This document shows positions 37,873 to 63,377 of a DNA stretch of 64,000 nt, piece after piece. The notes beneath the pieces were generated by a model that was given only the letters and a program-made list of their open reading frames with translations, was not told the DNA's origin and did not search any database. A program made the translations under genes and the position numbers. Origin of the DNA: Polytrichum commune (taxonomy: Eukaryota > Streptophyta > Polytrichopsida > Polytrichales > Polytrichaceae); assembly GCA_950295325.1 (NCBI GenBank), contig OX485807.1, forward strand, positions 38,656,440-38,720,439, in the 5' to 3' direction. Every line of letters begins with the position of its first letter. Position 1 is the stretch's first letter.

Positions 37873-38005
37873 CTGTGATGAACAACGCGACTAGTTTAAT
37901 TCTATGATCCAATAAAGAAATTGTTGCGTTGAAAATAAAGACGATGCATTATGGGAAAAGAGGAGGAAGTGAGGAGGGTGCAAGGAGAATGTTCAGAGGG
38001 GCACA

Positions 38006-38157
38006 ATTGCGAACGACCGTTCGTGAATGAAGGTTGCGGGGCGGTGCACATCATTTATGAACGCGCGTTCGTGAGCGCGGATGCATGCATATACGAACGC
38101 TCGTTCGCGAAGGATGTCAAGACGGGGTCGCACAGTTTTACGAACGAGCGTGAGTGA
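38006..38157. repeat. Copy 1 palindromes in intron C/D (four, partly decayed)
   Basis: Palindromes at about 38006-38028 (centre AC), 38054-38075 (CG), 38090-38111 (CT) and 38136-38157 (half decayed), all with the ACGAACG...CGTTCGT core or near variants. Intron between exons C and D of copy 1. Confidence 0.8.
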
Positions 38158-38446
38158 GTGAGGTGTGCATGCAAAGAATGCAAGGACGCGCAAGAGCACA
38201 GACAACACAAGACGCGAGAATATGCAATAAGTTGAGGGGATGCGAGCAGAGATCGTCTGCTCATATATTAATTTGGTGAATATGTACATTTGTCTCGCGT
38301 GATAATCTATCACAATTTCCTAAGGAAAAAATGCAGTGTCCTACAAAATTGATCGGCCCAAGCGATCACGTAGAAAAATGCTCGCGCGGGCAACGTGATG
38401 TCGATGGAGTTGAAGCGCCAAGAACACAACGCGGGGGGTTAGTGAT

Positions 38447-38525
38447 ATTACGAACGCGCATTCGTAAAACATTTGGCATTCTCAGAGATGAGTTACCTCT
38501 TTGATTAACGAACGCGCGTTCGTAA
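38447..38525. repeat. Copy 1 palindromes spanning the exon C donor
   Basis: One palindrome in the intron (38447-38468, 27 nt after the donor) and one in the last codons of exon C (38505-38525, read as TNARS on the minus strand). Core ACGAACG/CGTTCGT, centres CG. Confidence 0.85.
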
Positions 38526-39900
38526 TATCCATTGGGGAAACAGCCTCTGGATCCATGACCTCCGCTGGACGCTCCTCCTGAGACGACTGGGTCTGTTGGA
38601 TGAGCTCCACGTCGTCGTCCCCGCCCAGGTCGAGTCTCTCCATGCGGACATCCTCCATGTGCGCGGACGGATGTCCTTCCTGGTCAGGGCTCTCCACGAC
38701 CATCCCACGCGGACCTGCCGAGTCATTGGGGCTCCCCTGCGTTTCCTCCACAATGACCATGTCAGTGTGTTGCGCAGTGTCATCGCCCCGCCTATCTAGA
38801 ACCCTTGGGACGACGGTGAAAGAGGCCGTGTCGGTGTCTGTGGGCAGTCCTACCCTTGAAGGGGGAGGGGTGAGGACTGCCAGACCTGAAGATTCACGAA
38901 CGCGCGTTCGTAAATCTTCGTCCTCCCTTAGCGCCGCCGTGATTGCATCGTGGGAGGTTGAGGCGGCCGCCGTCACTTCCGGGGGCAATGGACTTCCCGC
39001 CGGCGTTGGATGTGGCGTTGTTTGGTGGGAAGGCCCTCCTTGGTACATGACTGGAGGTGGGGGCTGTGAGGGGTATCCTCCAAGGGGGAAGGGGTAAGGT
39101 TGCTGGACCGGCGCAGAGAGGCTCTGCATGTTTCTGAGCATCTCGAAGATGGCGTCGGTTTTGGCCGCTGAATCCCTCAGCTGCTCTTGCAGCCTAGCCA
39201 GATGCTTCGCGCTCTCCTCCTGTGCTGCAGCCATCTCCTCCTTCATCTTTGCCTCTAGCTTGGCGTTGAGCTCAGTGACGGTGAGTGCCTCCTCCTTCAC
39301 CCGCTTGTTCTTGTCGTAGTCCACGCCAAGCTCGGCCATGATGTCCATGTCCCCCTCGTCCTCGTCCGAGACCTCGATGATTGCTCCCGGCGGCAACTCC
39401 ACGTATGGAGTCTTCTTCATCCTCCTCCTTGTGTTGCGGAAGAGGTCCAAAGATGGCCGCGAGCGTTGGTCGAGGATGTCCAGGGTTTCCATCTTCGGAA
39501 CCACGGCGGGCCTTGGAGACTGTGACGTCGAGCATCCGCCTGGCGTTCCGAAAGGCTCCGCAAGAGATGTTCTCGCCGGGAGGACGTCCAGGGTTGTCCC
39601 CGCGGACGACCCGGTGTAACCACCCGGCGTCCCTTGAGGATCGGGAAGATCCGTCGTTGGCGGCAAGATCCGAAGTGGGGGTACGTCGAAGGACTGCAGA
39701 ATGGCGTCCACATTGGCGGAGGGGGTGGGCTCGTCGTCCTCAGAATCGTGGAATGGTATGCCCTCGTCGGCGGGCATACTGAAGTCCATCCTGGGGACAG
39801 AGATGTCCTTGAGGTCCATCGTCGACGCCTTCGCACGGTGGATCTTGAAGTCTTCTTCGTCGATAGCGTCAACGAATGTGTTGACTACGAGACCCATCAT
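38497..39900 (-). CDS. Copy 1, exon C: acidic, coiled-coil, Pro-rich domain
   Basis: Acceptor TTCTCACAG precedes ATGATGGG at 39900. Donor GTAACTC follows GAG at 38497. 468 open codons in phase 0. Begins MMGLVVNTFVDAIDEEDF, then Ser/Pro/Asp-rich sequence, LFRNTRRRMKKTPYVELPPG, an acidic patch (EVSDEDEGDMDIMAEL), a coiled coil (VTELNAKLEAKMKEEMAAAQ onward, with AKHLARLQEQL) and a Pro/Gln-rich C-terminus. Copy 2 aligns at the acidic patch (ISSEDEDDMELAKKL) and at LTVEEANAKM. Two palindromes lie inside the coding sequence: 38891-38916 (read as DLRTRVRES) and 38505-38525 (read as ITNARSLI). Function unknown. It links the B and D domains. Confidence 0.65.
38891..38916. repeat. Copy 1 palindrome inside exon C coding sequence
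   Basis: 26-bp near-perfect palindrome starting GATTCACGAACG and ending CGTTCGTAAATC, centre CG. Read on the minus strand as DLRTRVRES without stop. Confidence 0.85.
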
Positions 39901-39928
39901 CTGTGAGAAGAGAGCAATAAGGTCAGAA

Positions 39929-40103
39929 AATACGAACGCACGTTCGTAAACATCAAAGCGTAGCGTGCAACGAGTTTCAAGCATTACATTACGAAGGGGT
40001 TATGTTTACAAACGAGCGTTCGTAAACATGAATGCGTCACGTGCAGAGACTGTGAAACAATACATTGAGAAGTTGGTTAACTTTACGAACGAGCGTTCGT
40101 AAA
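39929..40103. repeat. Copy 1 palindromes in intron B/C (three)
   Basis: At 40082-40103 (19 nt after the donor, centre AG), 40004-40027 (AG) and 39929-39950 (CA). The homologous intron of copy 2 also has three palindromes, of the other family. Confidence 0.88.
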
Positions 40104-40122: not shown

Positions 40123-41448
40123 CATGGCCGCATACATGAATTTGGAGCCTCCACATACGTTGTATACCGTCTCTCCACTTATAACCAAACTCTGCAATAC
40201 AGAGACGTAGAACTCCATCCTGAGTTCCATGGCGGGGAAGACGGTGTAGAGGGTCTCTTGCAACAGATCCTTGGGAGGGGGATGCGGGATGCTGTAGATT
40301 TTCTTGAACGTGTTGTTTGCCTTGATAGGCGGTCGCCCATCCCTTAGCTCATTGTACGTCAAGAAAATCAGGCTGACCGCTCCCACCTGCTTGTTGCCCC
40401 TGGCCTCGTTGATGGCCACAATCCCCTCCGTCTTCGCTGGCACGTACGTGCTGTAGAAGATGCTGTACTCGAATTTGATCTTCTGCTCATACAGCTCTGT
40501 GACCACAGACAGCTTCTCTTGTTCGACTATCCACAGCCAAACGTGTGGCTCCCTCATGGCCGGCGATTTGAACTCCATGAACTTGGCCATGAAAGGGTTG
40601 TAGAAGGGAATGTCCTTCCCCCCCTGCCTTGACGCATCCGGGACCCCCCTGAAATCGATGAGGGCAAAAGGGCAACCCCGTCGATCCTCCCTCACCTCGG
40701 CCCTGCTGATGGTGCCATCCCACTTGGAAAATGTGACCCTCTCCACGCCGGAGGTGATCATGCAAAACCTTGCCACTCCTTTGAATGTGGCGTTCCTCTT
40801 CCTCTCCAAAAATTTTAAGTACAACATAACCTCATGGGGATCCGTGTCGGTTTTCTTAGTCCTTTTGTTCCCCTTCAACTTCAAAACCGAGGCGTGCTCC
40901 TTGACCAGACTGCGCATGGAGGCTCCGTTGATGTTGTAGTCGACCTTTAACATTTGCCATTGCGGCCATATGATGTCGCCGTTGACTTCAAAGATTCTGT
41001 ACTCTGGTACGAGTACGCTCAACTCTCTCATGACTGCAGTCTTCAGCTTCCGGTGGTCACACCACTCTTTGATAGAGTACGTGCCGGGCTTGTGCTTTGG
41101 CCTCTTCAAAAAGATCTTGGGATAGGGAAGGGTTCTTCCCACGGTGTTCCCAAGAACATGAATCGCACACCTCTTCAGCTCTGACTCCGTCAATCCCTGG
41201 AGGTATCTAAAGAACTCCCTCAGTAGTGGGGGCGCTTCACCGGTTTTTTCCGTGCTGTACTTCTCCTCCGTGTCGGGGTTGACCAAATCGCCCGAGCTGT
41301 GTGCATCAAAAAACTGGGTCCACAAATCCCATGTGTCCCTGTTGCAGCAGATCAGTCTGAGCTCACCCTTCAACTCAAGCACAGACTTTGTGGTGGTGGA
41401 CTTCATATCGATGGAAGAGAACTTGTCTACCATCGCGTCACAAAATGC
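40123..41448 (-). CDS. Copy 1, exon B: large conserved domain with methylase-motif-I-like end
   Basis: Acceptor TTTTGTGCAG (41449-41450). 442 codons in phase 0. Donor GTAAGT directly after ATG at 40123. Starts FCDAMVDKFSSIDMKS. Contains ELRLICCNRDTWDLW, LLREFFRYLQGLTESELKRC, FALIDFRGVPDAS, PHVWLWIVEQEKL, MELRMEFYVSVLQSLV and ends SGETVYNVCGGSKFMYAAM. All of these have counterparts in copy 2. The end resembles motif I of N4/N6 DNA methylases (GDxVxDPFxGSGTTxxAA), but the catalytic DPPY-type motif is not visible, so if related it is degenerate. The strong conservation between otherwise diverged copies suggests past selection on the protein. Confidence 0.68.
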
Positions 41449-41478: not shown

Positions 41479-41559
41479 TAATACGAATGCACGTTCGTAA
41501 AGCACGTCAGTAATTGATGTTTTCGTGAGTCCAACACTTTACGAACGTTCGTTCGTAAA
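41479..41559. repeat. Copy 1 palindromes in intron A/B (two)
   Basis: At 41538-41559 (begins 5 nt after the donor GT, centre TT) and 41479-41502 (centre CA, one arm mismatch). The homologous intron in copy 2 has two of the other family. Confidence 0.88.
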
Positions 41560-41646: not shown

Positions 41647-44470
41647 CACTCTGCGGGATCACTTTTAGTTAGAATGTTAGCATTAAAAGTTAGAATTGAT
41701 AGGGAATTTAGGAAAAAATTAGTTCATTTAGCATTTAGCCTAGAAGAAGGAAGGTCAAAATGAAACTAAGTAGTGCTAGAAGATAGCAAAGTAGAAAAAA
41801 ATATGCTAGCTAGTAAAAACAACTAGCTAAGCAAATATTAGTAGATGCTAGCTATTAAGCAAATGTTAGTAAATGCTAGCTAAGCAAGTGTTAGTTTATT
41901 AGTTAGTGTGAGGCACACAAGACTATTAGAGGTGGTTTAGATAAGAAGATAAAATCGGCGTGAAGAATTTTGAAGACAAAAAAGAAAGAGAGCAAGGGGG
42001 ATACTTGCCCACTTGCCCCCTTGCCAACTCGATGGCGGAAAAATTAGAAAGATTTCTAAAGGTTTTTTGTCGGAGCCACCTCGGCGAGAGGGTGGCAACC
42101 TCAACCGGGAAAACCCCCGAGCCAAAATTTCGGGAAAGGGTTTGAAAAATGGATCCGGTGGAGGAGGGGTCCAACCCTTTTGTGAGAGGGTTTAAAAACC
42201 CCTCCTTCCAACTTGTAGCTCTCTCTCTTTCTCTAGTTTTTGGGCGAAGCCCTGCTTCAATGTAGTTAGGAAAAAATCCTTTAGCATGTATTCTCAATGG
42301 TCTAAAAGAAAGGCTTGAGAACCTCCTCTACTCTCTCTCTCCTAGTTAGGTTGTGTGTTTATTAACACACCAACAAAATTATTCCTTCTTTTGTAGAGGT
42401 AGGTTGGATGGTAGAGTTTTGAGTAGAGGCATTATAGACCTCATCTGCCAATGCCCTGAAGGCTTAGTTCAAAAGCTAGAACAAGATACTTATCATTTTT
42501 CTCTTAGAGAGATTTCATATAGCTATCCATAGCCGTTTCCCATTTGTGATTTGGTTGAGATGACAATTAGTTATGGATTTTCAAAGATGGAGTAGAAAAA
42601 TTGGGTGGTCTTGTGGGTAGCGGCTGCTGGATCAGACCTGCGAGCCCAATAGGAATTTTAATTCCAAGAAATTATATTTTTCCCAAGTAGAACTTTTGTG
42701 TAGCTTTCCAAAATGGCTCAGAACATTTGATTTGAGCATGATTTGAATTAGATATGAATTGTGCAAGATGGGACACATAGTTTGAGAACTTTTGGTTGAC
42801 TGCTGCATTACAGAGGACCTGCTGGGTTCACTTCGGCTTACCTTTCTAATCACATATTTTTATCAAATACATCTTTTTAATATCTCTCCAGGGTCATATA
42901 GAACGTTTGATTTGACTAAGATTTGAATTAGATATGAATTGTTGAAGGCGAGATACATAGTTTAAGCCTTCTTGATTGACTGCTGTGTTACAAGGAGTCC
43001 GCTGAATTTATATTAGCTTAACCTGCTGATGTCATAATTTTTCTAGTTAGAGCTTGTTCATAGCTTTCCAATGGTATAAGGAAAGCCTAGATCCAAGTAG
43101 TAAGGAATGTGCTATGAATTTTTGAAGTTAGAAGGTAGATAGGTGGGTTGGAAGGGCCGGTTGAATCGACCTCACACTTCCAACCCTCATAACTTTTGCA
43201 TTTCTTATCCGATTAGAGTGATTTTTAGATCATTGGAAAGATAATTTGGTGCACTAAGTATAAATATTATGCTTAGGATTAAATTACAGGGCAGAATAAC
43301 ACTTTATATTTTAATTGTTAAGTAAGGTACGCTTACTACCAAACTAGTTACAAAGAAGGAGGCAAGGTCGACGCTCGGAAAGTGGAGCAAGGAAGGAGGT
43401 AGCGGCTCGGCCTACATCAAGCCCAAATCAACCGAGGAAAATTGAGGTAAATTAACTAACCTTAAGCCTTCCATTTAGGATTGGAGGGAGCACGGCTAAG
43501 GTACGCATCTCTAAACCCACTCACCTATCTCGTAAGGTCAAGTGGCTTGACCACTTGACCGCCAAGGGAGTACCCAATTCCATTGTTTTCGGGGGCCCTT
43601 GGTATATTTTGTGGTAGTAGCTTCATTTATTAGCAAGTTTCGTGTGTGGTAAGTCGGATTAATCACCGACACGACCACTCTGAATGTTGTTGGTGGAAAG
43701 GTGGGGTTAATGACCCGCGAATCCACTATTATGTTGTTGGCCCCATAGATTGGGAGTAATGGCCCCAATTTATGAAGATTGCGCAACAGGTTGAACATAC
43801 AGGTCGCCCGTCACCCTGGTCCCATTGAGTTGCATTTCGTGGTCTATCCAGTGTAAACACATTTAACAATCAAAACATACAAAATAAATCGTAAACCCTT
43901 GTTGGCAAGAGACCCGAGGTAAGGGGTGATGCCTAATATGTTAATGTAGTAAGTTAGGACGTGCAAACAAAAGTAAGTAATTAAGAAGGAATTTGTGTGA
44001 AGGGTGGGACTTAGGCCAAGTTCCCCCGCTTAGAAAACTAAATAGAACTAAATAAAGAAATAGGAAGAATTGAATGGTCCATCAAATTGTCGTTATTCCG
44101 TTCGTTGAGTTAGGGTGGTATGAGTCACACCCGGTTGGATGTATCAGAACCATCCCAATTCACAAATTAGGATTGCCTTGGTTTCAAGGCTGGTGCGTCT
44201 GCGCGTAGAATAGGTTGTAGGTTAAGGTTAGAACTAGATATGAAATTGGTTAGTGGAGTTTAAAGCCACACTAGTAAAAAACTAAGGCCTAACCTCCGGA
44301 GGTACTACGACGCATATTTAATCTCCCTTAAAAATCTAACTACTCACGTTATACACCTATCATCCGGGTTCGGCTTGGGCGCCTGCAAATGCAGGCCACC
44401 TTCACCGAAGGGCTTGTGTGATACTTTTAGGCTCCCTCGAAAGGGGGTGGCCCAAAAGTACCACAGTGTG
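41647..44470. mobile_element. 2.8-kb TIR-flanked insertion in copy 1 exon A
   Basis: Left end CACTCTGCGGGATCACTTTT; right end reverse complement CACACTGTGGTACTTTT. These are imperfect TIRs beginning CAC. The 4-mer CCAC flanks both sides (41643-41646 and 44471-44474). CAC-starting TIRs recall CACTA/En-Spm, whose usual duplication is 3 bp, so the class is uncertain. No coding sequence is recognised. It contains a tandem repeat (42620-43080) and a G/A-rich segment near 41940-42250. Confidence 0.5.
42620..43080. repeat. Tandem repeat, about 160-180 bp units, three diverged copies
   Basis: Recurring blocks: 'atttgaattagatatgaatt' (about 42742 and 42923), 'ttgactgctgcattac' / 'ttgactgctgtgttac' (about 42795 and 42976), 'agctttccaa' (about 42702 and 43060) and 'ctgctgg' / 'ctgctga'. 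Inside the 2.8-kb insertion. Confidence 0.6.
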
Positions 44471-45060
44471 CCACCCAGACATCTCTCGCAGCCACTATGT
44501 TAGCCGCCCACGAAGCCTCGAATGCCTTGATTTTGTTCCCCGAGTTCAGGAAGGTTGAAATCTTGCGCAGCTTGTCCCAATCGTCCGACCAGACCAAGAA
44601 CGCCTTCCAGTACCGCAGGTCAGCCTTCAGCTCGTGCTGGAAGTTGTCGTCCTTGAGGATCTGTTGCGACGCCTCCAAGCTATGCTGACCATCTATAATC
44701 CAGAATTCTCCATTCTGGATTCGCGGCCAATCCATCTCTGTCGGTCGGGATGTCAGCCCCTTGGGCATGACGCAGACGGTCTGCCTATCCCACTTTACGT
44801 TGTTCATGAGGTTGTTGATCTGCCACTTCACCCCACCGCTCTCGCGAGACCTTACCACCCACTTGTTGGGGGACTTTTCGCACTTGAAGCAGTCCACGTT
44901 GAACGTGAAGTGGCGCCCCATGGGCCAGCAATCCTTTGAGTAATTATTGAAATCTCGTAGGATCTTTGTTGCCTTCACTGCATCTGGATTCTCACCCTTC
45001 TTTAAAGGGGTTGTGAGGCCAAACCCCCCACCTTTAAGCGTTCGTAGTCCGAGTAGTGGG
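44471..45060 (-). CDS. Copy 1, exon A, ParB-like domain part
   Basis: After excision of the insertion 45061-47316, the N-terminal part of exon A (to SPKR...) reads in frame into NPLLGLRTLKGGG, then DRQTVCVMPKGL, EFWIIDGQHSLEASQQ, YWKAFLVWSDDWDKL, FLNSGNKIKAFEASWAANIV, ending at the next insertion. DGQHSLEA is the signature box of ParB/Srx-fold (DGxHRxxA) domains: parS-binding ParB, DndB/DGQHR proteins and ParB-type nucleases. Copy 2 has the same box (FWLIDGQHSVEASKK). Metal- or nucleotide-dependent DNA binding or cleavage is the known range of this fold. Which applies here is unknown. Broken by insertions on both sides. Confidence 0.62.
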
Positions 45061-47316: not shown

Positions 47317-48026
47317 TTTGGGCTCACAGGGGTTGGCATCAGGGGAGGAGAGCTCACCTCAGCGCCCTCTGTTACCCCAGACCTCTCCATTTCGTCCCGG
47401 GACCTCTTCGATGGCGTGGAATGTCGGCTGGGACCCTCCGTCACCCTGCTCGCGGAAGGCACCGGCCTGGGTGCACTTCTCGATCCTCCTGCCCCGGATG
47501 CTGATGGTTTTCGTGGGCTCTTCTTCTTCTTGTTGGCTTCGGCGACCGCGCTATTGTACTTGGAGATATTCAAGGAAAGTGCGGCCAACTTCCTTGCTGT
47601 CCAGTACGAGCTCAGGGCGTACTTCGTGAACAGGTCCTTGAGGAAGTGTTTGGCATCAGCCACTACGTTATTTTCTGCGTATGTGTAGGAGAAACTATGT
47701 CTCCTGTACTCTAACAGGAGGTTAATGTGATCCTTCTTATTTTTCATGTCTAAAATCACATAATCTTCTTGTGCCTCAATTGATTCTACTTCCCAAGTCT
47801 TCATCTGCACCCATTGCTCTGGCTGGTCCGGCGTTGTTTCCAGCTCGTAGGTGAAGCGAAGACAGAAAAGACTGTCTGATGTCTTCTCTGGCAATGCCGT
47901 CCATTCCCCAATGAAGTCCTCCTTCGGGACATAATTATCGTTTCCGTTGGGGTCGGACACTGACTCTGGTAGCTGATCTATCTGCACTGCGAACATCTCA
48001 ATGGCGCTCCTGCTCGGTCTAGCCAT
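47317..48026 (-). CDS. Copy 1, exon A, N-terminal part
   Basis: ATG at 48026 lies directly after a CTCTGCAG acceptor, so the ATG opens an internal exon and 5' untranslated exon(s) must lie upstream. Starts MARPSRSAIEMFAVQIDQLP. Then a beta-rich domain (DNYVPKEDFIGEW, VQMKTWEVESIEAQEDYVIL, FTKYALSSYW) and a basic Ser/Pro-rich linker (RHSTPSKRSRDEMERSG). Copy 2 shares DSYVPKDGVVLAW, WEVASIQSLGDYVDVIL and RQTTPSKRGRESSG. The reading frame continues across the retroelement insertion into 45060. Confidence 0.66.
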
Positions 48027-48550: not shown

Positions 48551-49476
48551 GTCATATGGAATTAGGAAATGGTATATTTATTTATATACATATATCCGTA
48601 CGTATATGTATACGTATATGTACATATACATATATATGTTGTTATGAATGTTGCGATCTGGCATTGTTCATGATCCTGCAACTCGTGATCAGATTGATGA
48701 AACACAAGTGAAAAATGGAATCAGAACAAAATTGCGAGTCAGTGATTGATAGTTCAGAATGAAGAGGAAAGTGTTATTTCATACAAAACATGCCATACCT
48801 CATAATGCAGAAAACAAATCACAAGGAATTCATCAAACAACAATTTCAGATTGTGAAGGACTGATTTGTAAAGGAAACTTGTACTCACATTGAATTGTTG
48901 CACAGAAAACCTCCTGCCTCCTACTGAGAAATCCAGAAATCCTCACAAATGCACACCAAATTGTCTTTCAAAAGCGTTGAATTCGCTTTCAATTGCAATT
49001 TCACTTTGTCACACTCTCAAGCCTTCACAATTTTTATGCAAATCCTACACAAACCCTGATGTACACAACTCACAACCTTCAGAAATCTCAAGCTTTCTGA
49101 AACTCTCAAGCTCTCAACCTTTCTAAAACTCTCCACTTCTCAATCTTTCTAAAACTCAAGCTCTCAAGCTTTCTAAAACTCTAAACCTCTCAAGCTTTCT
49201 ATAACTCTCAACCTCTCAACCTTTCTATAACTCTCAACCTCTCAACCTTTCCTACTCTCAAGCTTTCCTATTCTCAAGGTTCTGACAACACAACAAAACA
49301 ACATACACAATGACGCTCTAAAATTGGCAAGGGCTTCGCCGCACCTAAGAGCTCCTCTCCCCCTCTGCTCCAAATGACAAATGAGGAGGAGAGAGAGGGG
49401 CGCGGGGAGGTAGTCGGCGCCGCTAGGGTTTCCAAGCGGCAGCCACGTGGCTAGTGGCCACTGGCTAGGGCTGGGA

Positions 49477-52103: not shown

Positions 52104-52562
52104 ACGTTTACGAACGCACGTTCGTAAACGTGAATTAGTAGCACATGCATAAGAGGTACATAGAGATGATGTGAATTGTTTACGAACGTGCGTTCGTAAG
52201 TTGTTCACAACCGTACTCGACATTGAGTTACTTATAGACAGAACTAGGCACGAAAATTGTGTCGATTATATACGAACGTACGTTCGTATATCTGCCTTCA
52301 AGACCCAAACGCGCATGAGTTCCCGTGTAACCGTTTTCTCCAACGGAACATCTGATGATGGGATATTTACGAACGTGCGTTCGTAAATATCACCTGGGAT
52401 TATTTTTCAAGAATTCATAAACATTCCTTAATTTATACACTTCTGTGCATTGGCCACGTTAACAATATGGAAGTTAAATACGAACGCTCGTTCGTATTTC
52501 TCACTACCATTTATGTCCACAGAGAATTATGTTTTCCAATTTTACGAACGCATGTTCGTAAA
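52104..52562. repeat. Copy 1 type palindrome array (six), far upstream
   Basis: Palindromes at 52104-52131, 52179-52199, 52268-52291, 52362-52391, 52476-52499 and 52541-52562, centres CA, TG, TA, TG, CT and CA, spaced about 65-115 bp. Outer bases differ between copies but pair within each copy (ACG...CGT, ATA...TAT, GATA...TATC, AAA...TTT). Probably the distal part of the copy 1 promoter or 5' intron array, separated by the 3.5-kb spacer. Confidence 0.85.
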
Positions 52563-52649
52563 TACCACATGTCCACCGTCCATGCATCCACCAACAGAAC
52601 TGTTAACGCAAACATGTGTGGAGGACTACACCATGTTTAGGATAGATAC

Positions 52650-53622: not shown

Positions 53623-53624
53623 TT

Positions 53625-53636
53625 TGGTATCAGAGC
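53625..53636 (+). promoter_or_regulatory. tRNA-iMet primer-binding site
   Basis: TGGTATCAGAGC, the common plant LTR-retrotransposon primer-binding sequence complementary to the 3' end of initiator tRNA-Met, two bases after the LTR end. Confidence 0.88.
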
Positions 53637-55150
53637 AGGGTTCCAATATTTGAGCTAGCACTTTGAGGGAGACATGGCTATCAAACGTGAGGGTTATTAT
53701 GGTTAGCCCGGGGTTTCCAAAAGGTTGTGAGGCTCAAATTAGAACAAAGATCATGTGTAAAGGGAATTTGACCATACCATTGGTTCTAATGACAATGGTG
53801 GGCATGATGGTGGATTCGGTAAGGAAATTGGTGGAGTCCTTTGAAAGGGCTCCCGCACACCTCAAAAAAGCATTTGGGGCCTAGAATACCGAATGCACCC
53901 AAAACCTTGGAGGGCATTAATGTTGGATTGAAATTCCAATTCGAAATGCTTGGAAGGTATTGATGTTGGAATGAATTTGGTGGAAATGAGGCGTGCGGGC
54001 CTCTTAAGGCGTATATGCGCGAATTTCACACCCAAATGAATTGTGCATCTTAGATGAACGAGTTTTCTAAGAAGTACATCGTTTTAGGTGGGATTTCAAA
54101 AGCGGGTGGTGAATACCAAGTTCAAATTTCCAAAAGTTTATTGAGGTTGTGGCGGGGATCATCAAAATTGCAACGAGCATTAAGGCCGATGACCCCAATA
54201 AGAAATTTGGTGGTGCCTTACAACAATGGACGTTGAGGGGAGATAGGTACCACGCCAAATAATACTTATGCCGCGGACCGAATGTAAGACGATGGCATTG
54301 TGGCCAAGGCTAGTAGCCTTAAGCCGAGGCCAAGTCTTTTGTACTTTGAGGCTCAAATGAATGGGACAAATGTCTCATGGGTTGATAAAGAGGCTACCAT
54401 TCCTTCTTGAGCCCAAAACTCGCAAGGGAGTTGGGGCTTGCCGATTGATAGAGCGGGCAAGCCCACCAAGGTGCGGTTTGGAAAGGGCGAACCGCATGAA
54501 ACAAAGGAGGCCGCGATGCATGTAACTTTTCAATGTGGGACATTGGATTTTTGTCAAAATTTCACACCATGTGAAATAGATGAAATGCATGTCATTGTGA
54601 AGGCTGCCTTCTTTGGAACTCACATGATAGATGTGAGGTGCAAGCCGGTGAGCTTGCGGTGCATTTGTGATGTCTTGATGGCAAAGAATTGCACTACAAA
54701 TTGACAAGGACTCCTATGGTAGGAGGAACCAACTCGAATTTGGTCTTAATGGACCAAATGAATAAACGGAAAAACATAATAATAATGGTCGTGGTTCAAT
54801 TGGAGCAACTCCAAGGAACTCATGGGGAGGCTAGGAAAGATAGGCCTCCCCAAAACCACATTGGTGGGATGTTGGTGAGGTACAAGGATGTATTCACCAA
54901 TGTGTTGTCCAAAATGTTACCGCCAACGAGTGGGAAAAAAAAAAAAAAAAAAAAAAAAAAACTTGCTCAACGAGAGATTGAGTTCTTGAGGTATGTGATG
55001 ACAAAGGAAGTTGGTGGATGAACATGACAAATGTCAAGGCAATCCAAGAGGAGAATTGGCCCTTGACTCAAGAGAAGGGCTAAGGTCATTTGTTGGCCTA
55101 GCCAACTGCTACCACCACTTCATTCGAGGTGTTTCTAAGGTTGCTAGGAC
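53637..55150 (+). pseudogene. Decayed gag-pol of the Ty3/gypsy element
   Basis: Scattered frames. 54438-54704 reads FCQNFTPCEIDEMHVIVKAA, resembling the protease-to-RT region of plant gypsy elements. 54860-54925 reads YKDVFTNVLSKMLPP (RT start region). Then a homopolymer A tract (54935-54961), then LAQREIEFLRYVMTKE (RT end). About 55075-55150 reads GLANCYHHFIRGVSKVARTL in another frame, the segment that follows RT. The RT catalytic core is missing between them, and integrase and the 3' LTR are absent. Multiple stops and frame changes: inactive. Confidence 0.7.
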
Positions 55151-55297
55151 CTTAGAACACTATATTCGTTAAATTGAGACTTTTTGGGCATTTTGAGACA
55201 TTCACATAAATAAGAACAAGGATAAATGGAACACATATTGGAGAAAGTTGTAAGATGCGAACACTTTGAAGCAGGTGTTTAGACCAAGAACCCCATA

Positions 55298-55597
55298 AAT
55301 AACTCATATTTGTGATGGTTTAGGGTGGGCAATCCAAATCTTAGACCACATTTAAGGGGAAACCTTAAAACATTCATATTATTGCACACAAAATATTAGA
55401 GCTTGTATGAATATGGTTTAGGTAGGGCAATCCAAACCATAGATCTTATTGAAGGGTTAATATGTTAACCAATATAATATTGCATACAAAATATTCCAAA
55501 CTCATATTTGTGATGGTTTAGGTAGGGCAATCCAAACCTTAGACCATATGGAAGGGGAAATCATGTCTAACTTGTATTATTGCAAAAAAAAAACATA
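55298..55597. repeat. About 100-bp tandem repeat, three units
   Basis: Each unit carries 'atatggtttaggtagggcaa' or a close variant, then 'tccaaaccttagacc' and 'attattgca'. Lies between the gypsy remnant and the 3' end of copy 2. Function unknown. Confidence 0.7.
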
Positions 55598-55741
55598 CAA
55601 AGTGTGGCATGTAAAATGCATATCATGCTAACACCACACATGCATTGGATAGTGCGACCCAAAATGTTCTTGCCTATGGCCCAAAACCCTACGCCTACTA
55701 TGGCCTATCTAGCCTCGGATACTACCTCTTTTTCTTTTGCT

Positions 55742-56529
55742 TCATTTTCTTTTGCTTTTTTTTTCTTTTGCCTCTTTTTCTTTTGCCTCTTTTTCTTTTG
55801 CTGCAGCTTCTTTTGCTCGCATTGCTTCAACATTCCTGAAAATCTCCGCCCCGCGACTATAGCCATTCTTGGGGTGAACGCCATCAATAACACATTTTGT
55901 ATTCCGTCGGCCGCCCGAATTATACGACGAAGAATTCGAATACGATGAAGTGGACTGTCTTGCATTTCTGGTCATGGAGTAGAAACGCTCCAACTCGATG
56001 GACGCACTAGACCGCATAGGTTTACGGGTGGGAGCAACCTGCAACGCGTCAACGCAAGAACACATGTGTTAGTTTAGGGAGGAAGACCCAAACGTGTCAC
56101 ACATTCATTTTTTAAGTGCAAAATGATTGTAATGCGCGGATAACCATGTTTTTTTTTGGGGGGGGGGGGGTTCACCTTGTCACCGGGGGCGTTCCCGTCG
56201 GAGTTGGCGAGGAGGGGCAAGGCATCCCGCAAAGGAATAGGAAGGGTTCCACTCTTCGTAGGCCGAGCGTCCATCCGCAGCCGCCGTTGAGGTGTACTAC
56301 TGCCGCCGGGCCGAGAGGGGGATGTCCGGACGCATTTGCGATTTATGCCTTTGAGCGGTGACGGGGACGCAGATCGCCGGAAGATTTGCTTGGGTGGGGG
56401 GCTATCGACGACGCCGGCGTCAAGAGGCTCCTTGGAGTAGTCGATGGTTGACGCGGCGTCGTAAACGGTCTCGTAGAAGAAGCTCCCCAAGTCTGACTCG
56501 CTGACGACGTCAATCGAGGGCTCCAAACG
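55742..56529 (-). CDS. Copy 2, exons E1 and E2 (terminal exons)
   Basis: E1 runs 56529-56176 (acceptor TTTGGCTCCAG; donor GTGAAC after GACAAG; 118 codons, phase 0). E2 runs 56038-55742 (acceptor GCGTTGCAG; 99 codons including stop). E1 has YDAASTIDYSKEPLDAG, VVDSPPP and a Ser/Arg-rich part (RRSASPSP, RRLRMDARP). E2 has SSYNSGGRR, GYSRGAEIFRNVEAMRAKE and a Lys/Glu repeat tail (AKEKEAKEKE). No ATG opens the exon: it must be joined to an upstream exon. The nearest compatible donor is that of exon C (also phase 0), which would skip exon D, so an alternative C-terminus is the simplest reading. The basic tail may bind nucleic acid. Confidence 0.6.
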
Positions 56530-56672
56530 CTGGAGCCAAAATTGGAACAAAACAAAACCCAAGGAAAAGGGGGGAGATAGAGCGCGTGAAAATCAAGATA
56601 CATATGAAGCGTAAATTACACAAAATGGGTAGGCGCATATACACACACACACATACAAACACACGTACTGTC

Positions 56673-57485
56673 TCAAATGAGCTTGTTAAATTTCGCGTGA
56701 GATAACAACTCTCTGTACAAATGGTCTCGTGGATCCAAGTATCTCTCGCCTATGGGATTATTCCTAACAAAATTGTTTACGGGAAGTCCGCTTCCCCAGA
56801 GCGCCTGGAGGTATTTACTAAGGTCTAACAAAAATCGGTCCCGGACCTTCTCGACCGTCCACGTAGGGCACACTATGAAGTTGGCCGTCGGGTTCAACAT
56901 GTTCTTTGCGGCGCTGTCGTCCACCATGAGCGTGTTCTCGCGGGTGGGGCGGACGTCGTAGGGGACGCCTATCAAGGACGGTCGCTGGTCCCAAAAAATG
57001 GGCTTCAAGACCTTGAGGTATTGGGGGGAAGCGGGGTTGTTTGGTTTTTTGACGACTTTGCCGTCCTGTGTGTACAATATTCTACAGGCTTCCTGTGCTA
57101 GGACCATGCAGGGGGGCTCGATGCCCTTGAAGATGAACTCCACGACCGCATTGGTGTTCTCGGCCGTCATGGAGCTCCACACGACCACCCACCATCGTTG
57201 TTGGGCGATCTGGAGGAAGGTCCGAAGCCACGGGCGGAGGTGAACTAGCTTGCTCTTTATGAACGTGGGCGGCCCGTCGTAATTAGCGTCCTCGGGCTTG
57301 CAAAAGGGCACTGTGGGGGCCCTAGGGCAATGAACGCACTGCACGAGGACACCGTTCAGGTCTAACACCAGGAATCGTTTCTTCGGCAGCGGGGGCGGGG
57401 CGGGTAAAACCGGGGGCGCCACCGCGCTGCCCTCTCCGCTCCTTGGGGAAGAGCGTCGGGGAGCCGCTACGCTATGCTCCGAGCC
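56673..57485 (-). CDS. Copy 2, exon D: FCP1-type HAD phosphatase-like domain
   Basis: Acceptor CGTATCCGCAG. 271 codons in phase 0, ending SHAKFNKLI and a stop, as in copy 1. An N-terminal Pro/Ser-rich linker (about 35 residues) leads to KKRFLVLDLNGVLVQ (motif I, D42-L-N44). Then WWVVVWSSMTAEN (motif II), VVKKPN and YLKVLKPI (Lys region), and RENTLMVDDSAAKNML (motif IV, DD). About 60% of conserved positions are shared with copy 1 by eye over the core, including CPTWT/FPDTWT and the end. FCP1/SCP-like fold. The Asp-to-Asn change in the general-acid position is seen in several plant and fungal FCP1-like proteins and questions classical phosphatase activity. Confidence 0.78.
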   Translation of the reverse strand, partial: GSEHSVAAPRRSSPRSGEGSAVAPPVLPAPPPLPKKRFLVLDLNGVLVQCVHCPRAPTVPFCKPEDANYDGPPTFIKSKLVHLRPWLRTFLQIAQQRWWVVVWSSMTAENTNAVVEFIFKGIEPPCMVLAQEACRILYTQDGKVVKKPNNPASPQYLKVLKPIFWDQRPSLIGVPYDVRPTRENTLMVDDSAAKNMLNPTANFIVCPTWTVEKVRDRFLLDLSKYLQALWGSGLPVNNFVRNNPIGERYLDPRDHLYRELLSHAKFNKLI

Positions 57486-57943
57486 CTGCGGATACGAGCG
57501 AGAGAAAACGGGGGCGACTTATGTCATGCTATGTCCAAACGAAGCATTAAGGAAACGAGCGTTCTTGGTGCAAACACAAAAGCATTTGATTCATTTTGGA
57601 GGGGGTGCAACAAGGGATACAAGGGATACAAGAGCATACAAAATACATTCAAACACAATATACAAGTATATAGGAGTCAAAAATGGTGATTATATTATAT
57701 ACAATGCTCTATGTACATCTTGATTGGGGGAGCCGCGTTGAACGATGCGTTCAAACTAGCCTACTTCTACATCTAGAAAAAATTGAAGAGACGGGCCGCC
57801 GTGATGAAGACTTCGTTGCAAAGCCGGGGGTAGGTGGACGAACGAATGGTCGCTGGGGGTGACGAAGGGCGCGAGTGCCGGGGGGGGCCTAAGTTCGTCC
57901 TAGCTAGGGGACACGACCAAGGCAAGAAGTCAAAGACCCAGGA

Positions 57944-57967
57944 AGTTTGGGTCGGCCGACCCAAACT
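57944..57967. repeat. Copy 2 palindrome in intron C/D
   Basis: Perfect 24-bp palindrome starting AGTTTGGGTCG with centre GC, 20 nt after the exon C donor on the minus strand. Confidence 0.92.
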
Positions 57968-58246
57968 GAGTGGGGTCAGTGCATTACCTCGCCTTGGTCG
58001 TGCCTTGACGACGTTGATGCCGGCATCGCGTGCGCTGCCCCACCTCTGTCACCGCCGCCTCCGACGACGCCGTCAGCCGCAACCTGCTCCTGCAAAGGCT
58101 GACTGTCAGGCCTTTGTCCCAACCCAACCTCCGCATGCGCATCATGCATTGGTTCATCGACTGGGTTAGGAGTAGAGGTATCACCAGGCCCTTGCGGGCC
58201 TTCAACATCTAGCATAGGCTCGTCGACCGGGGTCTGATGGGGGACG

Positions 58247-58272
58247 GGGTTTGGGTCGGCCGACCCAAACCC
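58247..58272. repeat. Copy 2 palindrome inside exon C (first)
   Basis: Perfect 26-bp palindrome starting GGGTTTGGGTCG, centre GC. Minus strand reads GFGSADPNP in frame. Confidence 0.92.
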
Positions 58273-58317
58273 TGCTGCTTGGCGAGGGTCGCTCTGCGAC
58301 GCTGCAACGTCGGCACT

Positions 58318-58339
58318 GTTTGGGTCGGACGACCCAAAC
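58318..58339. repeat. Copy 2 palindrome inside exon C (second)
   Basis: GTTTGGGTCG arm with centre GA. Minus strand reads FGSSDPN in frame. A decayed third site may be 58437-58453 (read DDPNLW). Confidence 0.9.
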
Positions 58340-59547
58340 ATGTGGGGGTCGTCCCGCTGGTGGTGTGGGGGCAAGAGGATGGGAGGCCGGAGCGGGGGGG
58401 GTGCCAACGAGCTGGACGCTCCGGGGACGCGCCAAAGGTTTGGATCATCCACCTGCTGCACAGGCGCGTAAGGACGGGCGTGCGGCTGCAGCAAATCCGC
58501 GAAGCTGAAGGAATGCTCCAACGCCGGCCGCGGGCGGATATCCTGTGGAGGGAAGCCTGCGGGCAAGTGAGGGAATGAACTCGGGGGAGCCATCACCAAT
58601 CCCTGCGCCAGCATGCCCTGGATCACTTGCGTGATGAGGTCCGCTTGGGACGGAGTTTGGGACATCGCCCTTTGCCGCTCCTGCTCCAACAGGAGAGCCC
58701 TCAACTCCGCGACTTCGTTGCGGACAGAGGGTTCCTCGGCGGCAGCCCTCTGCAGTCGCACACGCTGCTCCTCGTCTCGGAGCATTTTTGCGTTCGCCTC
58801 CTCCACGGTGAGGACCTCCGGTTTCACCCTCACATTCCCGGCGAACGCTCTGGGGGAGGCAGGATCAGACCTCAGCTTCTTGGCGAGTTCCATGTCGTCC
58901 TCGTCCTCGGAGCTTATTGCGATCGTCTCCTCCACCGCATAGTCCCCGTACAGCTTCTTCCCCTTCATCCTTCTACGCTCCCTGAAGGTGGCCGTCGCGT
59001 CCCTCGAGTACATATCCTTGGCGTCGTCCACCGTCAACGCGGGCACCAGCCTGCTCTGCGGCGTAGCAGGCCGCATGGCCTTCTTCCGCTGAGGGGCCTC
59101 GGATTCTTGAGTGAATCATGTTGCCCCTTCCTCCACCTCCCCCTCCACTTTCTCTGCTTCCTCCTCCGCCTCCTCCTCGTCTTCCTCCCCCTCCTCCCCA
59201 ACCCTGCCACCTGCTCCCATAGACGGATTGCCCGGATGCAACCCGATGAGCGGCTCTGGCAATTGAACGGGGGCCCGCATGGCGAATTCACCCGGGTTGA
59301 TTCGCCTCGCAATATCCAAAGGATTCTCGCCCCCCTCGACGATCTCTTCGACGTAGGATCCGGGTATCCAGTCGAGGATGTCCATTCTCTTGGCCAGCGC
59401 CTTTTGGGTCCTGTAGAATTGAACATCGGCATCCTCTACATAGGAGTAGATGTTCAACCCAGACATCTGCACAATCAAAATCAATACTATTAGTAACACC
59501 AAATGAACATATAATGGAAAATGACTTCCAAACAAAATAAGAATAGT

Positions 59548-59643
59548 TAGTTTGGGTCGCTCGACCCAAACTATGCATGGCCCTAGTTTGGGTCGCTCGA
59601 CCCAAACTGTGCATGCCCCTAGTTTGGGTCGTTCGACCCAAAC
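59548..59643. repeat. Copy 2 palindromes in intron B/C (three)
   Basis: At 59622-59643 (35 nt after the donor, centre TT), 59585-59608 (CT) and 59548-59573 (CT, extended to TAG...CTA). Separated by short 'atgcatggccct' or 'gcatgccc' spacers. Confidence 0.93.
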
Positions 59644-59677
59644 CGAACGTATAGGGACTTCTGGGTTTTCTGCTTAC

Positions 59678-61009
59678 CATGGCTGCAAAAATCGGTTTGG
59701 ACCCCCCGAAAACGTTGAAGATGCAGTCCCCTCTCTTCGTGAGGGTCCTCATCATCCGCAGGTAGAACTCCATGCGCAGCTCATCCGCGGGGTAGTTGGC
59801 GTACTTCGCCTCGTCATATAAGCTCCTGCTGGTACCCAACCCTTCTTGGACTTGGAAGAGCTTTTCCATCCTGGCTATGGGATGGTTTGGCACCTTAAGC
59901 AGCTCAGCTTTGTACACGAAGTACAAACACAACACGTTGACGATCTTCGTCTTCTTGTCTTTCAGCGTGCTGTACGCCCCCTCCGCCGGTGCAGCAACGT
60001 AGTGAGATTTCGAGACGGCATACTCCGGCTGCAATTTGCGCACGATCTCGTAAACCTGCTCTGCCCTTCTGTCCTCGACAATCCAGAGCCAGACGTCGAC
60101 CTCCCTGAATTTGGGGCTGGCGTAGTCCACGAACTTCGACAAGAAAGGATCGTAAAAAGGGGTGCTCATAGTCCCCTCGAATGAGGCTCCAGGGATGTTC
60201 CTGAAGTCTATCATTCCGAAGGGGAAGCGGTCCCCGGCTCTAGTCCTGATCGCCTTCCTTGACTCAGAACCCGGCCAACCCTGGATCCTGAGAGGTTCGA
60301 CAGTGACCATGTTGAATTGCGCATCGCCTTCGAAACTGACGATCTTCTTCTCCTTTATGAAGTTGGAGAAGGCCCGCACTGAGTGTTCGGGAAGCGCCCG
60401 GTTCCTCCCCCCCTTCACGAGCTTGGATCTGAGGAAGTCGTCTCCCGCCTCCCTCATGAGTGCCGCCATGGACGCACTGGTAAACTTATATTCGGCTTTG
60501 AAGGCCCTCCAGTGCGCCTCGTCGACCTCTCCGTCCACGATGAGCTTCTTCTCTGGCACAAGCTTGTGCAGCTCCTGGACGATGGTCGTCTTCTTCTTCC
60601 TGTTCTCCGTCCATTCCTTCATTGTGTAGCATGAAGGGACGAAGATCTTGGGTTTGGTGAAGACGATCTTAGGGTGGACCCAGCATCTCTTCGCCGTCGT
60701 CTCCACGTGTAGGATGTGGGACGCCGCTTTTCCCATCTCTGTCTTGGAGAGACCTTGAAGCGCTCTGAAGAACTCCCTCACCAGAGGCTTCATTTGCTTG
60801 AAGCACGTAGTCTGGTTGAAGAGCATGCCGGTGTCGGGGTCCATGAGGTCCCCCGTCTCGTGTTTTTCAAAAACACTCTTCCATCTTGCCCATACGGAAT
60901 CGGACGCTGTGATCAAATAGATTTCTCCTCTCAGCTCGTTATACTTTTTCTGCTTGTGGCTAGCATTGTCGATCGAGGAGAATTTATTGATCATTTGATA
61001 TTTGAAGTC
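59678..61009 (-). CDS. Copy 2, exon B: large conserved domain with methylase-motif-I-like end
   Basis: Acceptor CTTCCTGTGCAG. 444 codons in phase 0. Donor GTAAGC directly after ATG. Starts DFKYQMINKFSSIDNAS. Contains GEIYLITASDSVWARW, LVREFFRALQGLSKTEMGKA, FGMIDFRNIPGAS, VDVWLWIVEDRRAEQ, YPADELRMEFYLRMMRTL and ends KRGDCIFNVFGGSKPIFAAM. The end has the form of methylase motif I (GDxVxDPFxGSG) followed by AA. The next exon's start (MSGLNIYSYVEDADV) could be the beta-2/acidic-loop region. No DPPY box is seen. Bacterial and phage proteins with a ParB-type domain followed by a DNA methylase are known, and the order here (A then B) is the same. Confidence 0.7.
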
Positions 61010-61070
61010 CTGCACAGGAAGACATTAGCACATGTTAGACAACACATAATGGAAAAACAAATGCAACAGC

Positions 61071-61150
61071 AGTTTGGGTCGACCGACCCAAACTATCAAC
61101 CTGGCGATGACAACAAAACAATGTAGGAGTTTGGGTCGATCGACCCAAAC
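61071..61150. repeat. Copy 2 palindromes in intron A/B (two)
   Basis: At 61129-61150 (9 nt after the donor, centre AT) and 61071-61094 (centre AC, extended to AG...CT). Confidence 0.93.
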
Positions 61151-61158
61151 ATACTCAC

Positions 61159-62484
61159 CTCCCATTTGGGGTTCTTGTCTTTAGCATTCTCCCTTTCCTT
61201 GGGAGGCCTTCCATAAAACTCCCACACCTCCCTCGAGGCCATGATGTTTCTGATCCACGATGCCTGATAGGCCCTCTTTTTGTTCCCCATGTTGAAGAAC
61301 CTGGAGATGTCGCTGAGGACCGTCTCGTTGTCCGACCAAACCACCAAAGCCTTCCAAACTTTTAGCTTCTCCTTCTGGTTGTTCGGGTCGTCCCACTCGG
61401 TCATCAGCTGGATTTTTTTCGAGGCCTCCACACTGTGCTGCCCGTCAATCAGCCAGAAGTCTCCTTTAGAGATTGCCGGCCACATCTCAGGCGTCGGCAT
61501 TCTTTTCAGTCCTTGTGGCATGACAACAATTGTCTGCCTGTCGTCCTTGAACTGCCCGCCCAAGATTTGAGCGACCATCCAGTCGACGTAGGCGTCCTCC
61601 TTGGCTCGGACGCACTTCTCTGGTGGCGCAAGGTGGCACTGCGCAATGTTGACCTCGAATTTGAAGTCCCTGCCCATGAAGAAGCAGTGCAGGCATTTTG
61701 TCTCGAAGTTGTTGTTTATTTTTTGTATTTCGCCTGCATCCACCTCTTGGCCAGGCTTCGGCATCCGGAGCTCCGGGGAAACAGGCTCGTCAGTCATCCC
61801 CGATGACTCTCTTCCCCTCTTGGAAGGGGTCGTCTGACGGCTTCCTGATGGCGTTGGCGTCTCGCTGTCAGCCGGCGTTGTTGTAGTGCTCGTCCGTCTC
61901 GAGTCTGCAGGGACCGCCCGCGGTTTCCTCACAGTTTGTGGTCTTGAGGACCCTGCGCCTTCTTCCGTCGTTGCCTTCCGCCTCACAGGCTGCTGCGTCT
62001 TGGGTTTGCTTTGCAGCGCCTTGTTGAGAACCGTGATAGCCTGTTTTAACTTCGTGAACCTGCTCGCAACCTTCGTGTTCGTTACACTACCATCTATGAA
62101 TATGGCCTCCGGTTTTATGGTTTCAGGGTCGACGCAAGTCTCCTTGGCGTACAGGGGGTCGAAGGGCTCGGAGAACTGGTGCATGAACATGTGGACGTTC
62201 TGCACGGCGGAGTTCTCCAGTATCACGTCTACGTAGTCCCCGAGAGACTGGATGGACGCAACCTCCCATCCCGTCAGCGTTGCCCAGGTGTGCTGCTCGT
62301 GGGTCCCCACCTTCACCACGAATAGCAGCTTGAACATGGATGCCTTCACCACCTGAACGGACCATGCCAAAACGACGCCATCTTTTGGGACGTAAGAATC
62401 GTCCTGTGGAGTTTCATACTCCTGCCAAAGGTGGTCTGGCGCGAGCATGAACCACCTTTCACCTGGTCTCTTTTTAGGGGCCAT
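61159..62484 (-). CDS. Copy 2, exon A: N-terminal domain, linker and ParB-like DGQH domain
   Basis: ATG at 62484 directly follows a GGATTGCAG acceptor. 442 codons in phase 0. Donor GTGAGT after 61159. Residues 1-150: beta-rich domain (DSYVPKDGVVLAWSVQVVKA, WEVASIQSLGDYVDVIL). Residues about 180-270: basic Ser/Thr/Pro-rich linker (KAVPADSRR-like, SRQTTPSKRGRESSG). Residues about 280-330: Cys/His pair (TKCLHCFFMGRDFKF, AQCHLAP). Residues 322-410: DRQTIVVMPQGL, DFWLIDGQHSVEASKK (D347-G-Q-H350), WKALVVWSDNETVL, FFNMGNKKRAYQASWI. The ParB/Srx-fold box DGxHxxEA is intact. C-terminal FYGRPPKERENAK. Role inferred: DNA recognition or processing. Confidence 0.72.
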
Positions 62485-62511
62485 CTGCAATCCAAGAAAT
62501 CGAAACTGTGA

Positions 62512-62574
62512 GTTTCGGTCGATCGACCCAAAGTATTGCAATGTGCATTTAACATTTGGAGGATTGACCCAAAC
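62512..62574. repeat. Decayed copy 2 palindromes next to the exon A acceptor
   Basis: GTTTCGGTCG with a CGACCCAAAG partner at 62512-62533, and a weaker one at about 62553-62574 (TTTGGAGGATTGACCCAAAC-like). Both lie 25-90 nt upstream of exon A on the minus strand. Confidence 0.65.
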
Positions 62575-62649
62575 ATTTACTTAATTTTCAAAGTCGTTTT
62601 AAAAGATCTTTTAGATTTTAAAGTGTGGTTTAGGTGGTCACCCTGTAAT

Positions 62650-63377
62650 GTTTGGGTCGAGCGACCCAAACATGATGAGGCTGCAAATTTAGGTATCTCA
62701 ACACATTCATTTCAGACTGCAATGTTTGGGTCGAACGACCCAAACAATTACTTAATTTTGGAAGTTCTTTTATATTTTACAATGTGGTTTAGTTCTTCTC
62801 CCTGTAATGTTTGGGTCGAGCGACCCAAATATGTTAGGCTGCAAATTTAGGTAGCTCAACCCATTCATTTCAGACTGCAATGTTTGGGTCGAACGACCCA
62901 AACAATTACTTAATTTTCAAATTTCTCTTTTATTTTACAATGTGCTTTAGTTCTTCTCCCTGTAATGTTTGGGTCGACCGACCGAAACATGTTAGGTTGC
63001 AAATTTAGGTAGCTCAACCCAATCATTTCAGACTGCAATGTTTGGGTCGAACGACCCAAACATTCACTTAATTTTCAAAGTTCTTTTATATTTTACAATG
63101 TGGTTTAGTTCTTCTCCCTGTAATGTTTGGGTCGAGCGACCCAAACATGTTAGGCTGCAAATTTAGGTACCTCAACCCAGTCATTTCAGTCTGCAATGTT
63201 TGGGTCGAACGACCCAAACATTTACTTAATTTTTGAAGTTCTTTTATATTTTACAATGTGGTTTAGTTCTTCTCCCTGTAATGTTTGGGTCGAGCGACCC
63301 AAACATAATGAGGCTCCAATGTTTGGGTCGCTCGACCCAAACAAGAGGCTGCAATGTTTGGGTCGAACGACCCAAAC
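62650..63377. repeat. 158-bp tandem array carrying two copy 2 palindromes per unit
   Basis: Palindromes with centre AG start at 62650, 62809, 62967, 63125 and 63283. Palindromes with centre AA start at 62724, 62882, 63040, 63198 and 63356. Both series have a 158-159 bp period. Spacers are conserved ('ctgcaaatttaggtagctca' and 'ttagttcttctccctgtaat'). An extra palindrome with centre CT lies at 63321-63342 and a decayed one at 63429-63450. The array occupies the 5' flank or 5' intron of copy 2. Confidence 0.92.

What the first reader, a model, noticed from the sequence alone, without database searches (positions are those of the whole stretch)
37944..63377. Two paralogous genes, each with its own private palindrome family
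Copy 1 carries only palindromes with arm TTTACGAACG; copy 2 carries only palindromes with arm GTTTGGGTCG. Both have the same geometry: about 10-bp arm ending in CG, two free central bases, reverse-complement arm. I see neither family in the first 37 kb of the window. The arms differ at most positions although the genes are homologous. This suggests that each gene copy is linked to a specific site, as in self-recognition by a DNA-binding protein or a hairpin RNA.
Basis: partly seen in the sequence, partly recalled or inferred. Interest (0 to 1): 0.95.

Follow-up and report, generated by a model that had tools for sequence, protein, structure and literature searches.

The report
Transposon families with private palindromic sites
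The two genes belong to large jumping genes whose families each carry a DNA-binding-type protein and their own repeated palindrome, which looks like a private address tag by which each transposon recognises itself.

Summary
The genes are accessory genes of high-copy DNA transposons in a 408-Mb eukaryotic genome. Element 2 is 16.5 kb: 28-bp perfect terminal inverted repeats, 4-bp target duplications (3 of 3 copies examined), a divergent gene with a DUF7869 domain (presumed transposase), a gene for a protein with a ParB/sulfiredoxin-like and a beta-class-methyltransferase-like fold, and an NIF-phosphatase gene. Its palindromes sit in introns, a coding exon and length-variable tandem arrays. None of 77 loci read mixes palindrome types. 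A third type (arm TTTACGGACG, one base per arm from type 1; 1,147 exact sites, reversed-pattern control 0) accompanies a further paralogue clade. Best explanation: the ParB/MTase-like protein binds its own family's palindrome as a dimer, so the element recognises and marks or shields itself. A ParB+methyltransferase gene opposite the transposase, with self-binding suggested, is already reported for an Ectocarpus Sola1 transposon (PMC12477816, passages seen); matched private sites I did not find in print. Functionally it resembles Arabidopsis VANDAL/VANC, with unrelated proteins. Binding and outcome are inferred, not shown.

The parts
55156..55183 (+). Terminal inverted repeat of element 2 (left end on + strand), 28 bp AACACTATATTCGTTAAATTGAGACTTT; its partner lies outside the window at window-scale 71608-71635 (C5:38728047-38728074)
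   Evidence: 28 of 28 bp match between the two ends, 4-bp target duplication TTAG; 14 of 15 scored copies end at 55145-55156, one at 55413
56673..57518 (-). Element 2 gene 2: NIF/FCP1-like phosphatase ORF
   Evidence: Pfam NIF E 4.2e-15; 44% identical to 37105-37890
57976..59466 (-). Element 2 gene 1, exon D region (contains an in-frame TGA at 59116-59118 in this reading: intron, or damage)
   Evidence: ORFs; 32% identity over 174 aa to copy 1 exon D; two palindromes lie in the reading frame
57945..58339 (.). Type-2 palindromes at 57945 (after the stop), 58249 and 58318 (coding)
59550..59643 (.). Three type-2 palindromes at 36-bp spacing in the intron between exons C and D
   Evidence: splice signals read
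59678..61009 (-). Element 2 gene 1, exon C: helical part plus beta-class DNA methyltransferase-like fold (exon residues 225-444)
61072..61150 (.). Two type-2 palindromes in the intron between exons B and C
61159..62484 (-). Element 2 gene 1, exon A+B: beta-rich N-terminal domain, disordered linker, ParB/sulfiredoxin-like domain with DGQHS motif
62512..63450 (.). Type-2 palindrome array (11 with <=1 mismatch, 62650-63377, plus degenerate ones at 62512 and about 63429), in part as 158-bp tandem units, inside an inferred 5'UTR intron 63570-62485
   Evidence: intron inferred from splice signals
31497..31510 (+). Left end of element 1, AACACTATATTCGG, matching the start of the element 2 terminal repeat
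   Evidence: other end of element 1 not found
31874..32845 (-). Element 1, downstream exons of gene 2, cut off from the NIF exon by other inserted sequence
   Evidence: ORF; likeness to 56074-56592 by inspection
37105..37890 (-). Element 1 gene 2: NIF-like phosphatase ORF
   Evidence: Pfam NIF E 6.4e-16
38006..38914 (.). Type-1 palindromes, partly degenerate, 3' of and inside exon D (38006, 38054, 38090, 38137, 38447, 38505, 38893)
38482..39900 (-). Element 1 gene 1, exon D
39929..40103 (.). Three type-1 palindromes in the intron between exons C and D
40123..41448 (-). Element 1 gene 1, exon C
   Evidence: 37% identity to element 2 exon C; >=95 genomic matches at 83-100% (capped list)
41480..41559 (.). 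Two type-1 palindromes in the intron between exons B and C
44427..45005 (-). Element 1 gene 1, ParB-like part (exon B), separated from exon A and from the end of exon B by inserted sequence
   Evidence: 42% identity; breaks seen
47343..48026 (-). Element 1 gene 1, exon A
   Evidence: 29% identity
48057..48546 (.). Six type-1 palindromes in the inferred 5'UTR intron 48888-48027
52107..52562 (.). Upstream type-1 palindrome cluster, six sites

Best explanation
Each gene is the accessory gene of a TIR DNA transposon of the kind that carries a ParB-plus-methyltransferase protein. The protein (N-terminal beta domain, ParB/sulfiredoxin-like domain, methyltransferase-like domain) binds, as a dimer, the 22-bp palindrome that is scattered through its own element (two 10-bp half sites, 2 free central bases). 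Many sites per element let it coat or mark the whole element and tell it from other transposons and host DNA. The likely use is epigenetic self-management: keeping host silencing off, or laying down its own DNA mark. Since the methyltransferase motif DPPY is missing, shielding, anti-silencing or regulation of the divergent promoters is favoured over methylation. When a lineage changes its protein specificity the sites change with it, giving mutually exclusive address systems. Shown: element structure, recent mobility, conserved sites, one site type per locus read. Inferred: that gene 1 is the binder, dimeric binding, and the epigenetic outcome.
For: Site conservation: type 2 arms 1.64-2.00 bits, spacer 0.48, flanks mostly <=0.20 over 152 distinct instances, 106 perfect. 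No mixing in 77 loci. Third type beside a further paralogue: L074, and exon-C hit C1:27959647-27960909 with type-3 sites at C1:27959473 and 27960954. A type-1 paralogue at 85% identity, C1:2466223-2467548, has type-1 sites at C1:2466107 and 2467568. Genome counts 2,909 (type 1) and 1,147 (type 3) against 0 for the reversed patterns. Transposon: 28-bp TIR, 4-bp TSD in 3 of 3 copies; exon C copies at 100% on several chromosomes; DUF7869 gene present at 99.8% in a second copy. Fold: ParB and beta-class DNA MTase. Purifying selection: dN/dS 0.042-0.100 in 6 of 8 pairs tested; one near-identical pair gave 1.06 on dS 0.004, one was saturated. Sites in introns, 5'UTR intron, and tandem arrays differing in length by multiples of about 78 bp among copies. 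A paper reports a ParB+MTase gene opposite a Sola1 transposase and suggests it binds its own transposon.
Against: No binding data. ParB match is a middling Z (8.3) on a model with mean pLDDT 73.7 and Foldseek E no better than 2.5e-3; the residues that would read the site are unknown. No sequence family in Pfam, NCBIfam or PDB supports either domain. The transposase or NIF protein could be the binder instead. Type 3 differs from type 1 by one base per arm, so two types are not far apart. Cluster C1:640864-646099 has type-1 sites without a listed gene-1 hit.
Confidence: 0.6

Rival explanations
1. The palindromes are binding sites of the transposase itself (internal and subterminal sites as in other TIR transposons) and gene 1 has nothing to do with them; gene 1 and site type correlate only because both travel in one element.
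For: The largest array lies beside the DUF7869 gene. Any gene of the element would show the same correlation.
Against: Sites are spread through introns and a coding exon of gene 1 up to about 13 kb from the DUF7869-gene end of the element and are not concentrated at the two ends: none with <=6 mismatches between 67826 and the right TIR except one poor match at 72852, which lies outside the element.
Confidence: 0.2
2. The palindromes act as RNA hairpins in the pre-mRNA (splicing control or small-RNA source), not as DNA sites.
For: Nearly all lie in transcribed regions of gene 1; arm pairs sometimes change together (for example 52269 and 52477).
Against: The 78-bp array lies between two divergent genes, outside the inferred transcripts. 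The arms are fixed in sequence, whereas a hairpin needs pairing only. No Rfam match. Folding was not tested.
Confidence: 0.08
3. The palindromes are themselves small mobile elements that spread inside larger transposons and have no role for the host element.
For: They occur also in coding sequence, as mobile palindromic elements do (recalled).
Against: Strict match of type to transposon clade; 10-bp arms with free spacer; the tandem units copy the site together with its surroundings (158-, 78-, 57-, 45- and 36-bp units), so spread is by tandem duplication inside the element; no mixing.
Confidence: 0.05
4. The sites are homogenised by gene conversion and tandem duplication only, without selection for binding.
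For: Tandem arrays with varying copy number are plain.
Against: Flanks around equivalent sites have diverged while arms have not; sites in different introns, in the 5'UTR intron and in coding sequence share arms but not surroundings.
Confidence: 0.05

Closest known systems
Sola1-1_Ec32 transposon of the brown alga Ectocarpus, with a ParB-like + DNA methyltransferase accessory protein (PMC12477816; passages seen); [quoted passage not shown]
   Same: Large element (21.5 kb there, 16.5 kb here); accessory gene on the strand opposite the transposase; ParB-like plus amino-methyltransferase-type domain in one protein of about 1,100 aa; self-binding suggested by the authors.
   Different: Here the DPPY motif is absent, an NIF-phosphatase gene follows, and private palindromes are present; the word palindrom occurs 0 times in that paper's main text. 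Sequence homology between the two proteins was not tested.
VANDAL transposons and VANC anti-silencing proteins of Arabidopsis (PMC5735166; parts 1 and 2 of 6 and passages read)
   Same: Related elements each encode a related protein and a different short motif; motifs are dense in non-coding parts of the element including introns and form tandem repeats; proposed protein-site coevolution.
   Different: VANC is a different protein (DUF1985, DUF287); VANC motifs are 8-9 nt and not palindromes; VANDALs are Mutator-like; VANC binding and hypomethylation are shown by experiment, nothing of the kind here.
Bacterial ParB-parS
   Same: ParB-type fold and a palindromic site (parS palindrome and clamp loading recalled).
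   Different: The ParB motif GERRxRA (recalled) is replaced by DGQHSxEAS; no helix-turn-helix was identified; eukaryotic transposon, many sites, site differs by family.

Membership tests
TIR (cut-and-paste type) DNA transposon | terminal inverted repeats | tested here: met
   28 of 28 bp at both ends of element 2
TIR (cut-and-paste type) DNA transposon | target site duplication of fixed length | tested here: met
   4 bp in 3 of 3 copies examined: TTAG, AAAT, TTGT
TIR (cut-and-paste type) DNA transposon | encodes a DDE transposase | tested here: inconclusive
   Large divergent gene with Pfam DUF7869, E 9e-43; that this is the transposase is inference, catalytic residues not mapped
Sola1 superfamily | 4-bp target duplication (recalled) | tested here: met
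Sola1 superfamily | Sola1 transposase homology | not tested
   no Sola1 reference sequence was compared
ParB+methyltransferase transposon accessory proteins | gene opposite to the transposase gene | tested here: met
ParB+methyltransferase transposon accessory proteins | ParB-like fold | tested here: met
ParB+methyltransferase transposon accessory proteins | amino-methyltransferase fold | tested here: met
Active beta-class N6A/N4C DNA methyltransferase | motif IV (D/N/S)PP(Y/F/W) (recalled) | tested here: not met
   no such motif in exon C of either copy; IDFR stands where it would be expected (reading; the placement is inference)
ParB CTPase | GERRxRA motif (recalled) | tested here: not met
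   DGQHSxEAS in its place in most rows of A2
VANDAL/VANC | VANC domains DUF1985/DUF287 | tested here: not met
   no Pfam match of gene 1 exons at the curated cut-off
VANDAL/VANC | family-specific motif dense in non-coding parts, in tandem repeats | tested here: met
VANDAL/VANC | protein binds motif and removes methylation | not testable with these tools
   needs EMSA, ChIP, methylome

The most novel reading that the evidence does not exclude
A eukaryotic transposon uses a ParB/parS-like self-recognition system: a ParB-fold protein loads at private palindromes and spreads along the element as a clamp, coating only its own family, and related transposons in one genome have split this into at least three mutually exclusive protein-palindrome codes that allow recognition to be read off and rewired.
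Probability: 0.2. Interest if true: 0.93.

Novelty: new variant of a known kind. Interest (0 to 1): 0.77.

Why it matters
How a transposon tells its own DNA from the host's, and how such specificity changes, is known in detail for one system (VANC). Here an unrelated, ParB-like protein class comes with long, exact, palindromic candidate sites, several orthogonal versions in one genome, and hundreds of natural copies. That makes the suggestion that ParB-methyltransferase accessory proteins act on their own element directly testable, and offers a natural series of protein-site pairs for working out a recognition code.
Full report
What is there. Type 1 (arm TTTACGAACG) lies only in the stretch of copy 1, type 2 (arm GTTTGGGTCG) only in that of copy 2. 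The arms differ at 5 of 10 positions. In 152 distinct type-2 instances from 63 sources the arm is nearly fixed (1.64-2.00 bits per column; 106 perfect), the two central bases are not (0.48 bits) and the surroundings are close to random. Instances were selected by likeness to the arm, so the arm value is partly built in; the sharp edges are not. Type 1 is looser (44 instances, 13 perfect).

The genes. Both copies are read on the minus strand and share one plan: a 5'UTR intron full of palindromes, exon A, exon B, an intron with palindromes just after its donor site, exon C, another intron with palindromes, exon D with palindromes in the coding frame, a palindrome after the stop, then an NIF-phosphatase gene. 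Introns were inferred from splice signals and reading frames, not from transcripts. Copy 1 looks broken: its ParB-like part is cut by inserted sequence on both sides, and its NIF gene is split by other inserted sequence.

The elements. A DNA search of the own genome with 52600-64000 gave 15 scored copies; 14 end at window 55145-55156 and one at 55413. The other end lies outside the window. Upstream of the 5'UTR intron come about 2.5 kb without palindromes, an array of 17 palindromes in units of about 78 bp (66555-67825 on the window scale), and then a gene on the other strand with Pfam DUF7869, E 9e-43. The array length differs among 37 scored copies, largely by multiples of about 78 bp. A second copy on the same chromosome has the same DUF7869-gene sequence at 99.8% over 2,501 bases. 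At window-scale 71608-71635 stands the exact reverse complement of the 28 bp at 55156-55183, and 4-bp direct duplications flank the element in 3 of 3 copies examined. Element 2 is thus a 16,480-bp TIR transposon with 4-bp target duplications. The left end of element 1 (31497) begins with the same word; its other end was not found. Copies of exon C identical at 100% on several chromosomes show recent activity; dN/dS between subfamilies is 0.042-0.100 in 6 of 8 pairs, with one near-identical pair at 1.06 on dS 0.004 and one saturated.

Does every paralogue have a private palindrome? All 60 loci L005-L064, taken from two searches with different queries, carry type 2 only; many are near-identical. 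Over all 77 loci 63 carry type 2 only, 7 type 1 only, 1 type 3 only, 6 none, 0 a mixture. Using a distant metagenome homologue as query, 95 more exon-C matches came up at 27-33% identity (capped). Intron pieces were read for five of them: three carry type 1 (L073, L075, L076; the last two nearly identical), one type 2 (L077), and one a new palindrome, TTTACGGACG-NN-CGTCCGTAAA (L074). A second member of that clade, C1:27959647-27960909, is flanked by the new palindrome on both sides. The new type has 1,147 exact sites in the genome and type 1 has 2,909; the same patterns read backwards have 0. Type 3 differs from type 1 by one base in each arm, changed in both arms together. Type 2 was not counted (searches unanswered).

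Metagenome relatives. 49 proteins match exon C and 49 match exon A+B, mostly on short contigs without names.

How it likely works. A dimeric ParB-like protein fits a palindrome with a free 2-bp centre. Sites are spread through the element, and an array stands between the divergent genes, where a binder could also control both promoters. By analogy with VANC, which binds its own family's motif in non-coding parts and removes methylation (PMC5735166, parts 1-2 of 6 and passages), I propose self-recognition for epigenetic shielding or marking. The step from linkage to binding, and from binding to outcome, is inference. The main rival is that the transposase reads the sites.

What is known. [quoted passage not shown] The element here has the same plan. 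The private palindromes, their three types, and the loss of the catalytic motif are what I add; my searches (43, 73, 93, 94, 140, 146, of an open-access library) showed no report of them. I therefore call it a new variant of a known kind.

Noticed in passing
206-2521 and 2612-3934 (+): Two large ORFs that look like pieces of another transposase-type gene (a SWIM-like zinc-binding pattern by eye); the first has no Pfam match, the second was not scanned.
   Followed up: partly
20533-23835 (+): A run of ORFs (288, 204, 435 and 156 aa) resembling a multi-exon mobile-element gene; the 435-aa piece has no Pfam match.
   Followed up: partly
34335-36254 (-): 639-aa ORF, retroelement gag-like by eye, inserted between exons of the element 1 NIF gene.
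   Followed up: no
49467-49694 and 51293-51750: G-rich (GGGGA/GGGGAT) and TATATACA simple-repeat tracts in the 5' region of element 1.
   Followed up: no
55301-55591 and 56072-56093: 98-bp repeats and a single site that resemble decayed type-2 palindromes having lost their CG steps, near the 3' end of element 2.
   Followed up: no
L065:1777-1954 and window about 49920-50290: A similar stretch in the 5' region of both elements, with an inverted self-match of about 70% in L065.
   Followed up: no
G000 C1:640864-646099: Dense type-1 palindromes with no gene-1 hit in the capped list: perhaps a non-autonomous derivative.
   Followed up: no
NIF genes 37105-37890 and 56673-57518: Both elements carry an NIF/FCP1-type phosphatase gene, an unusual transposon passenger of unknown use.
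   Followed up: partly
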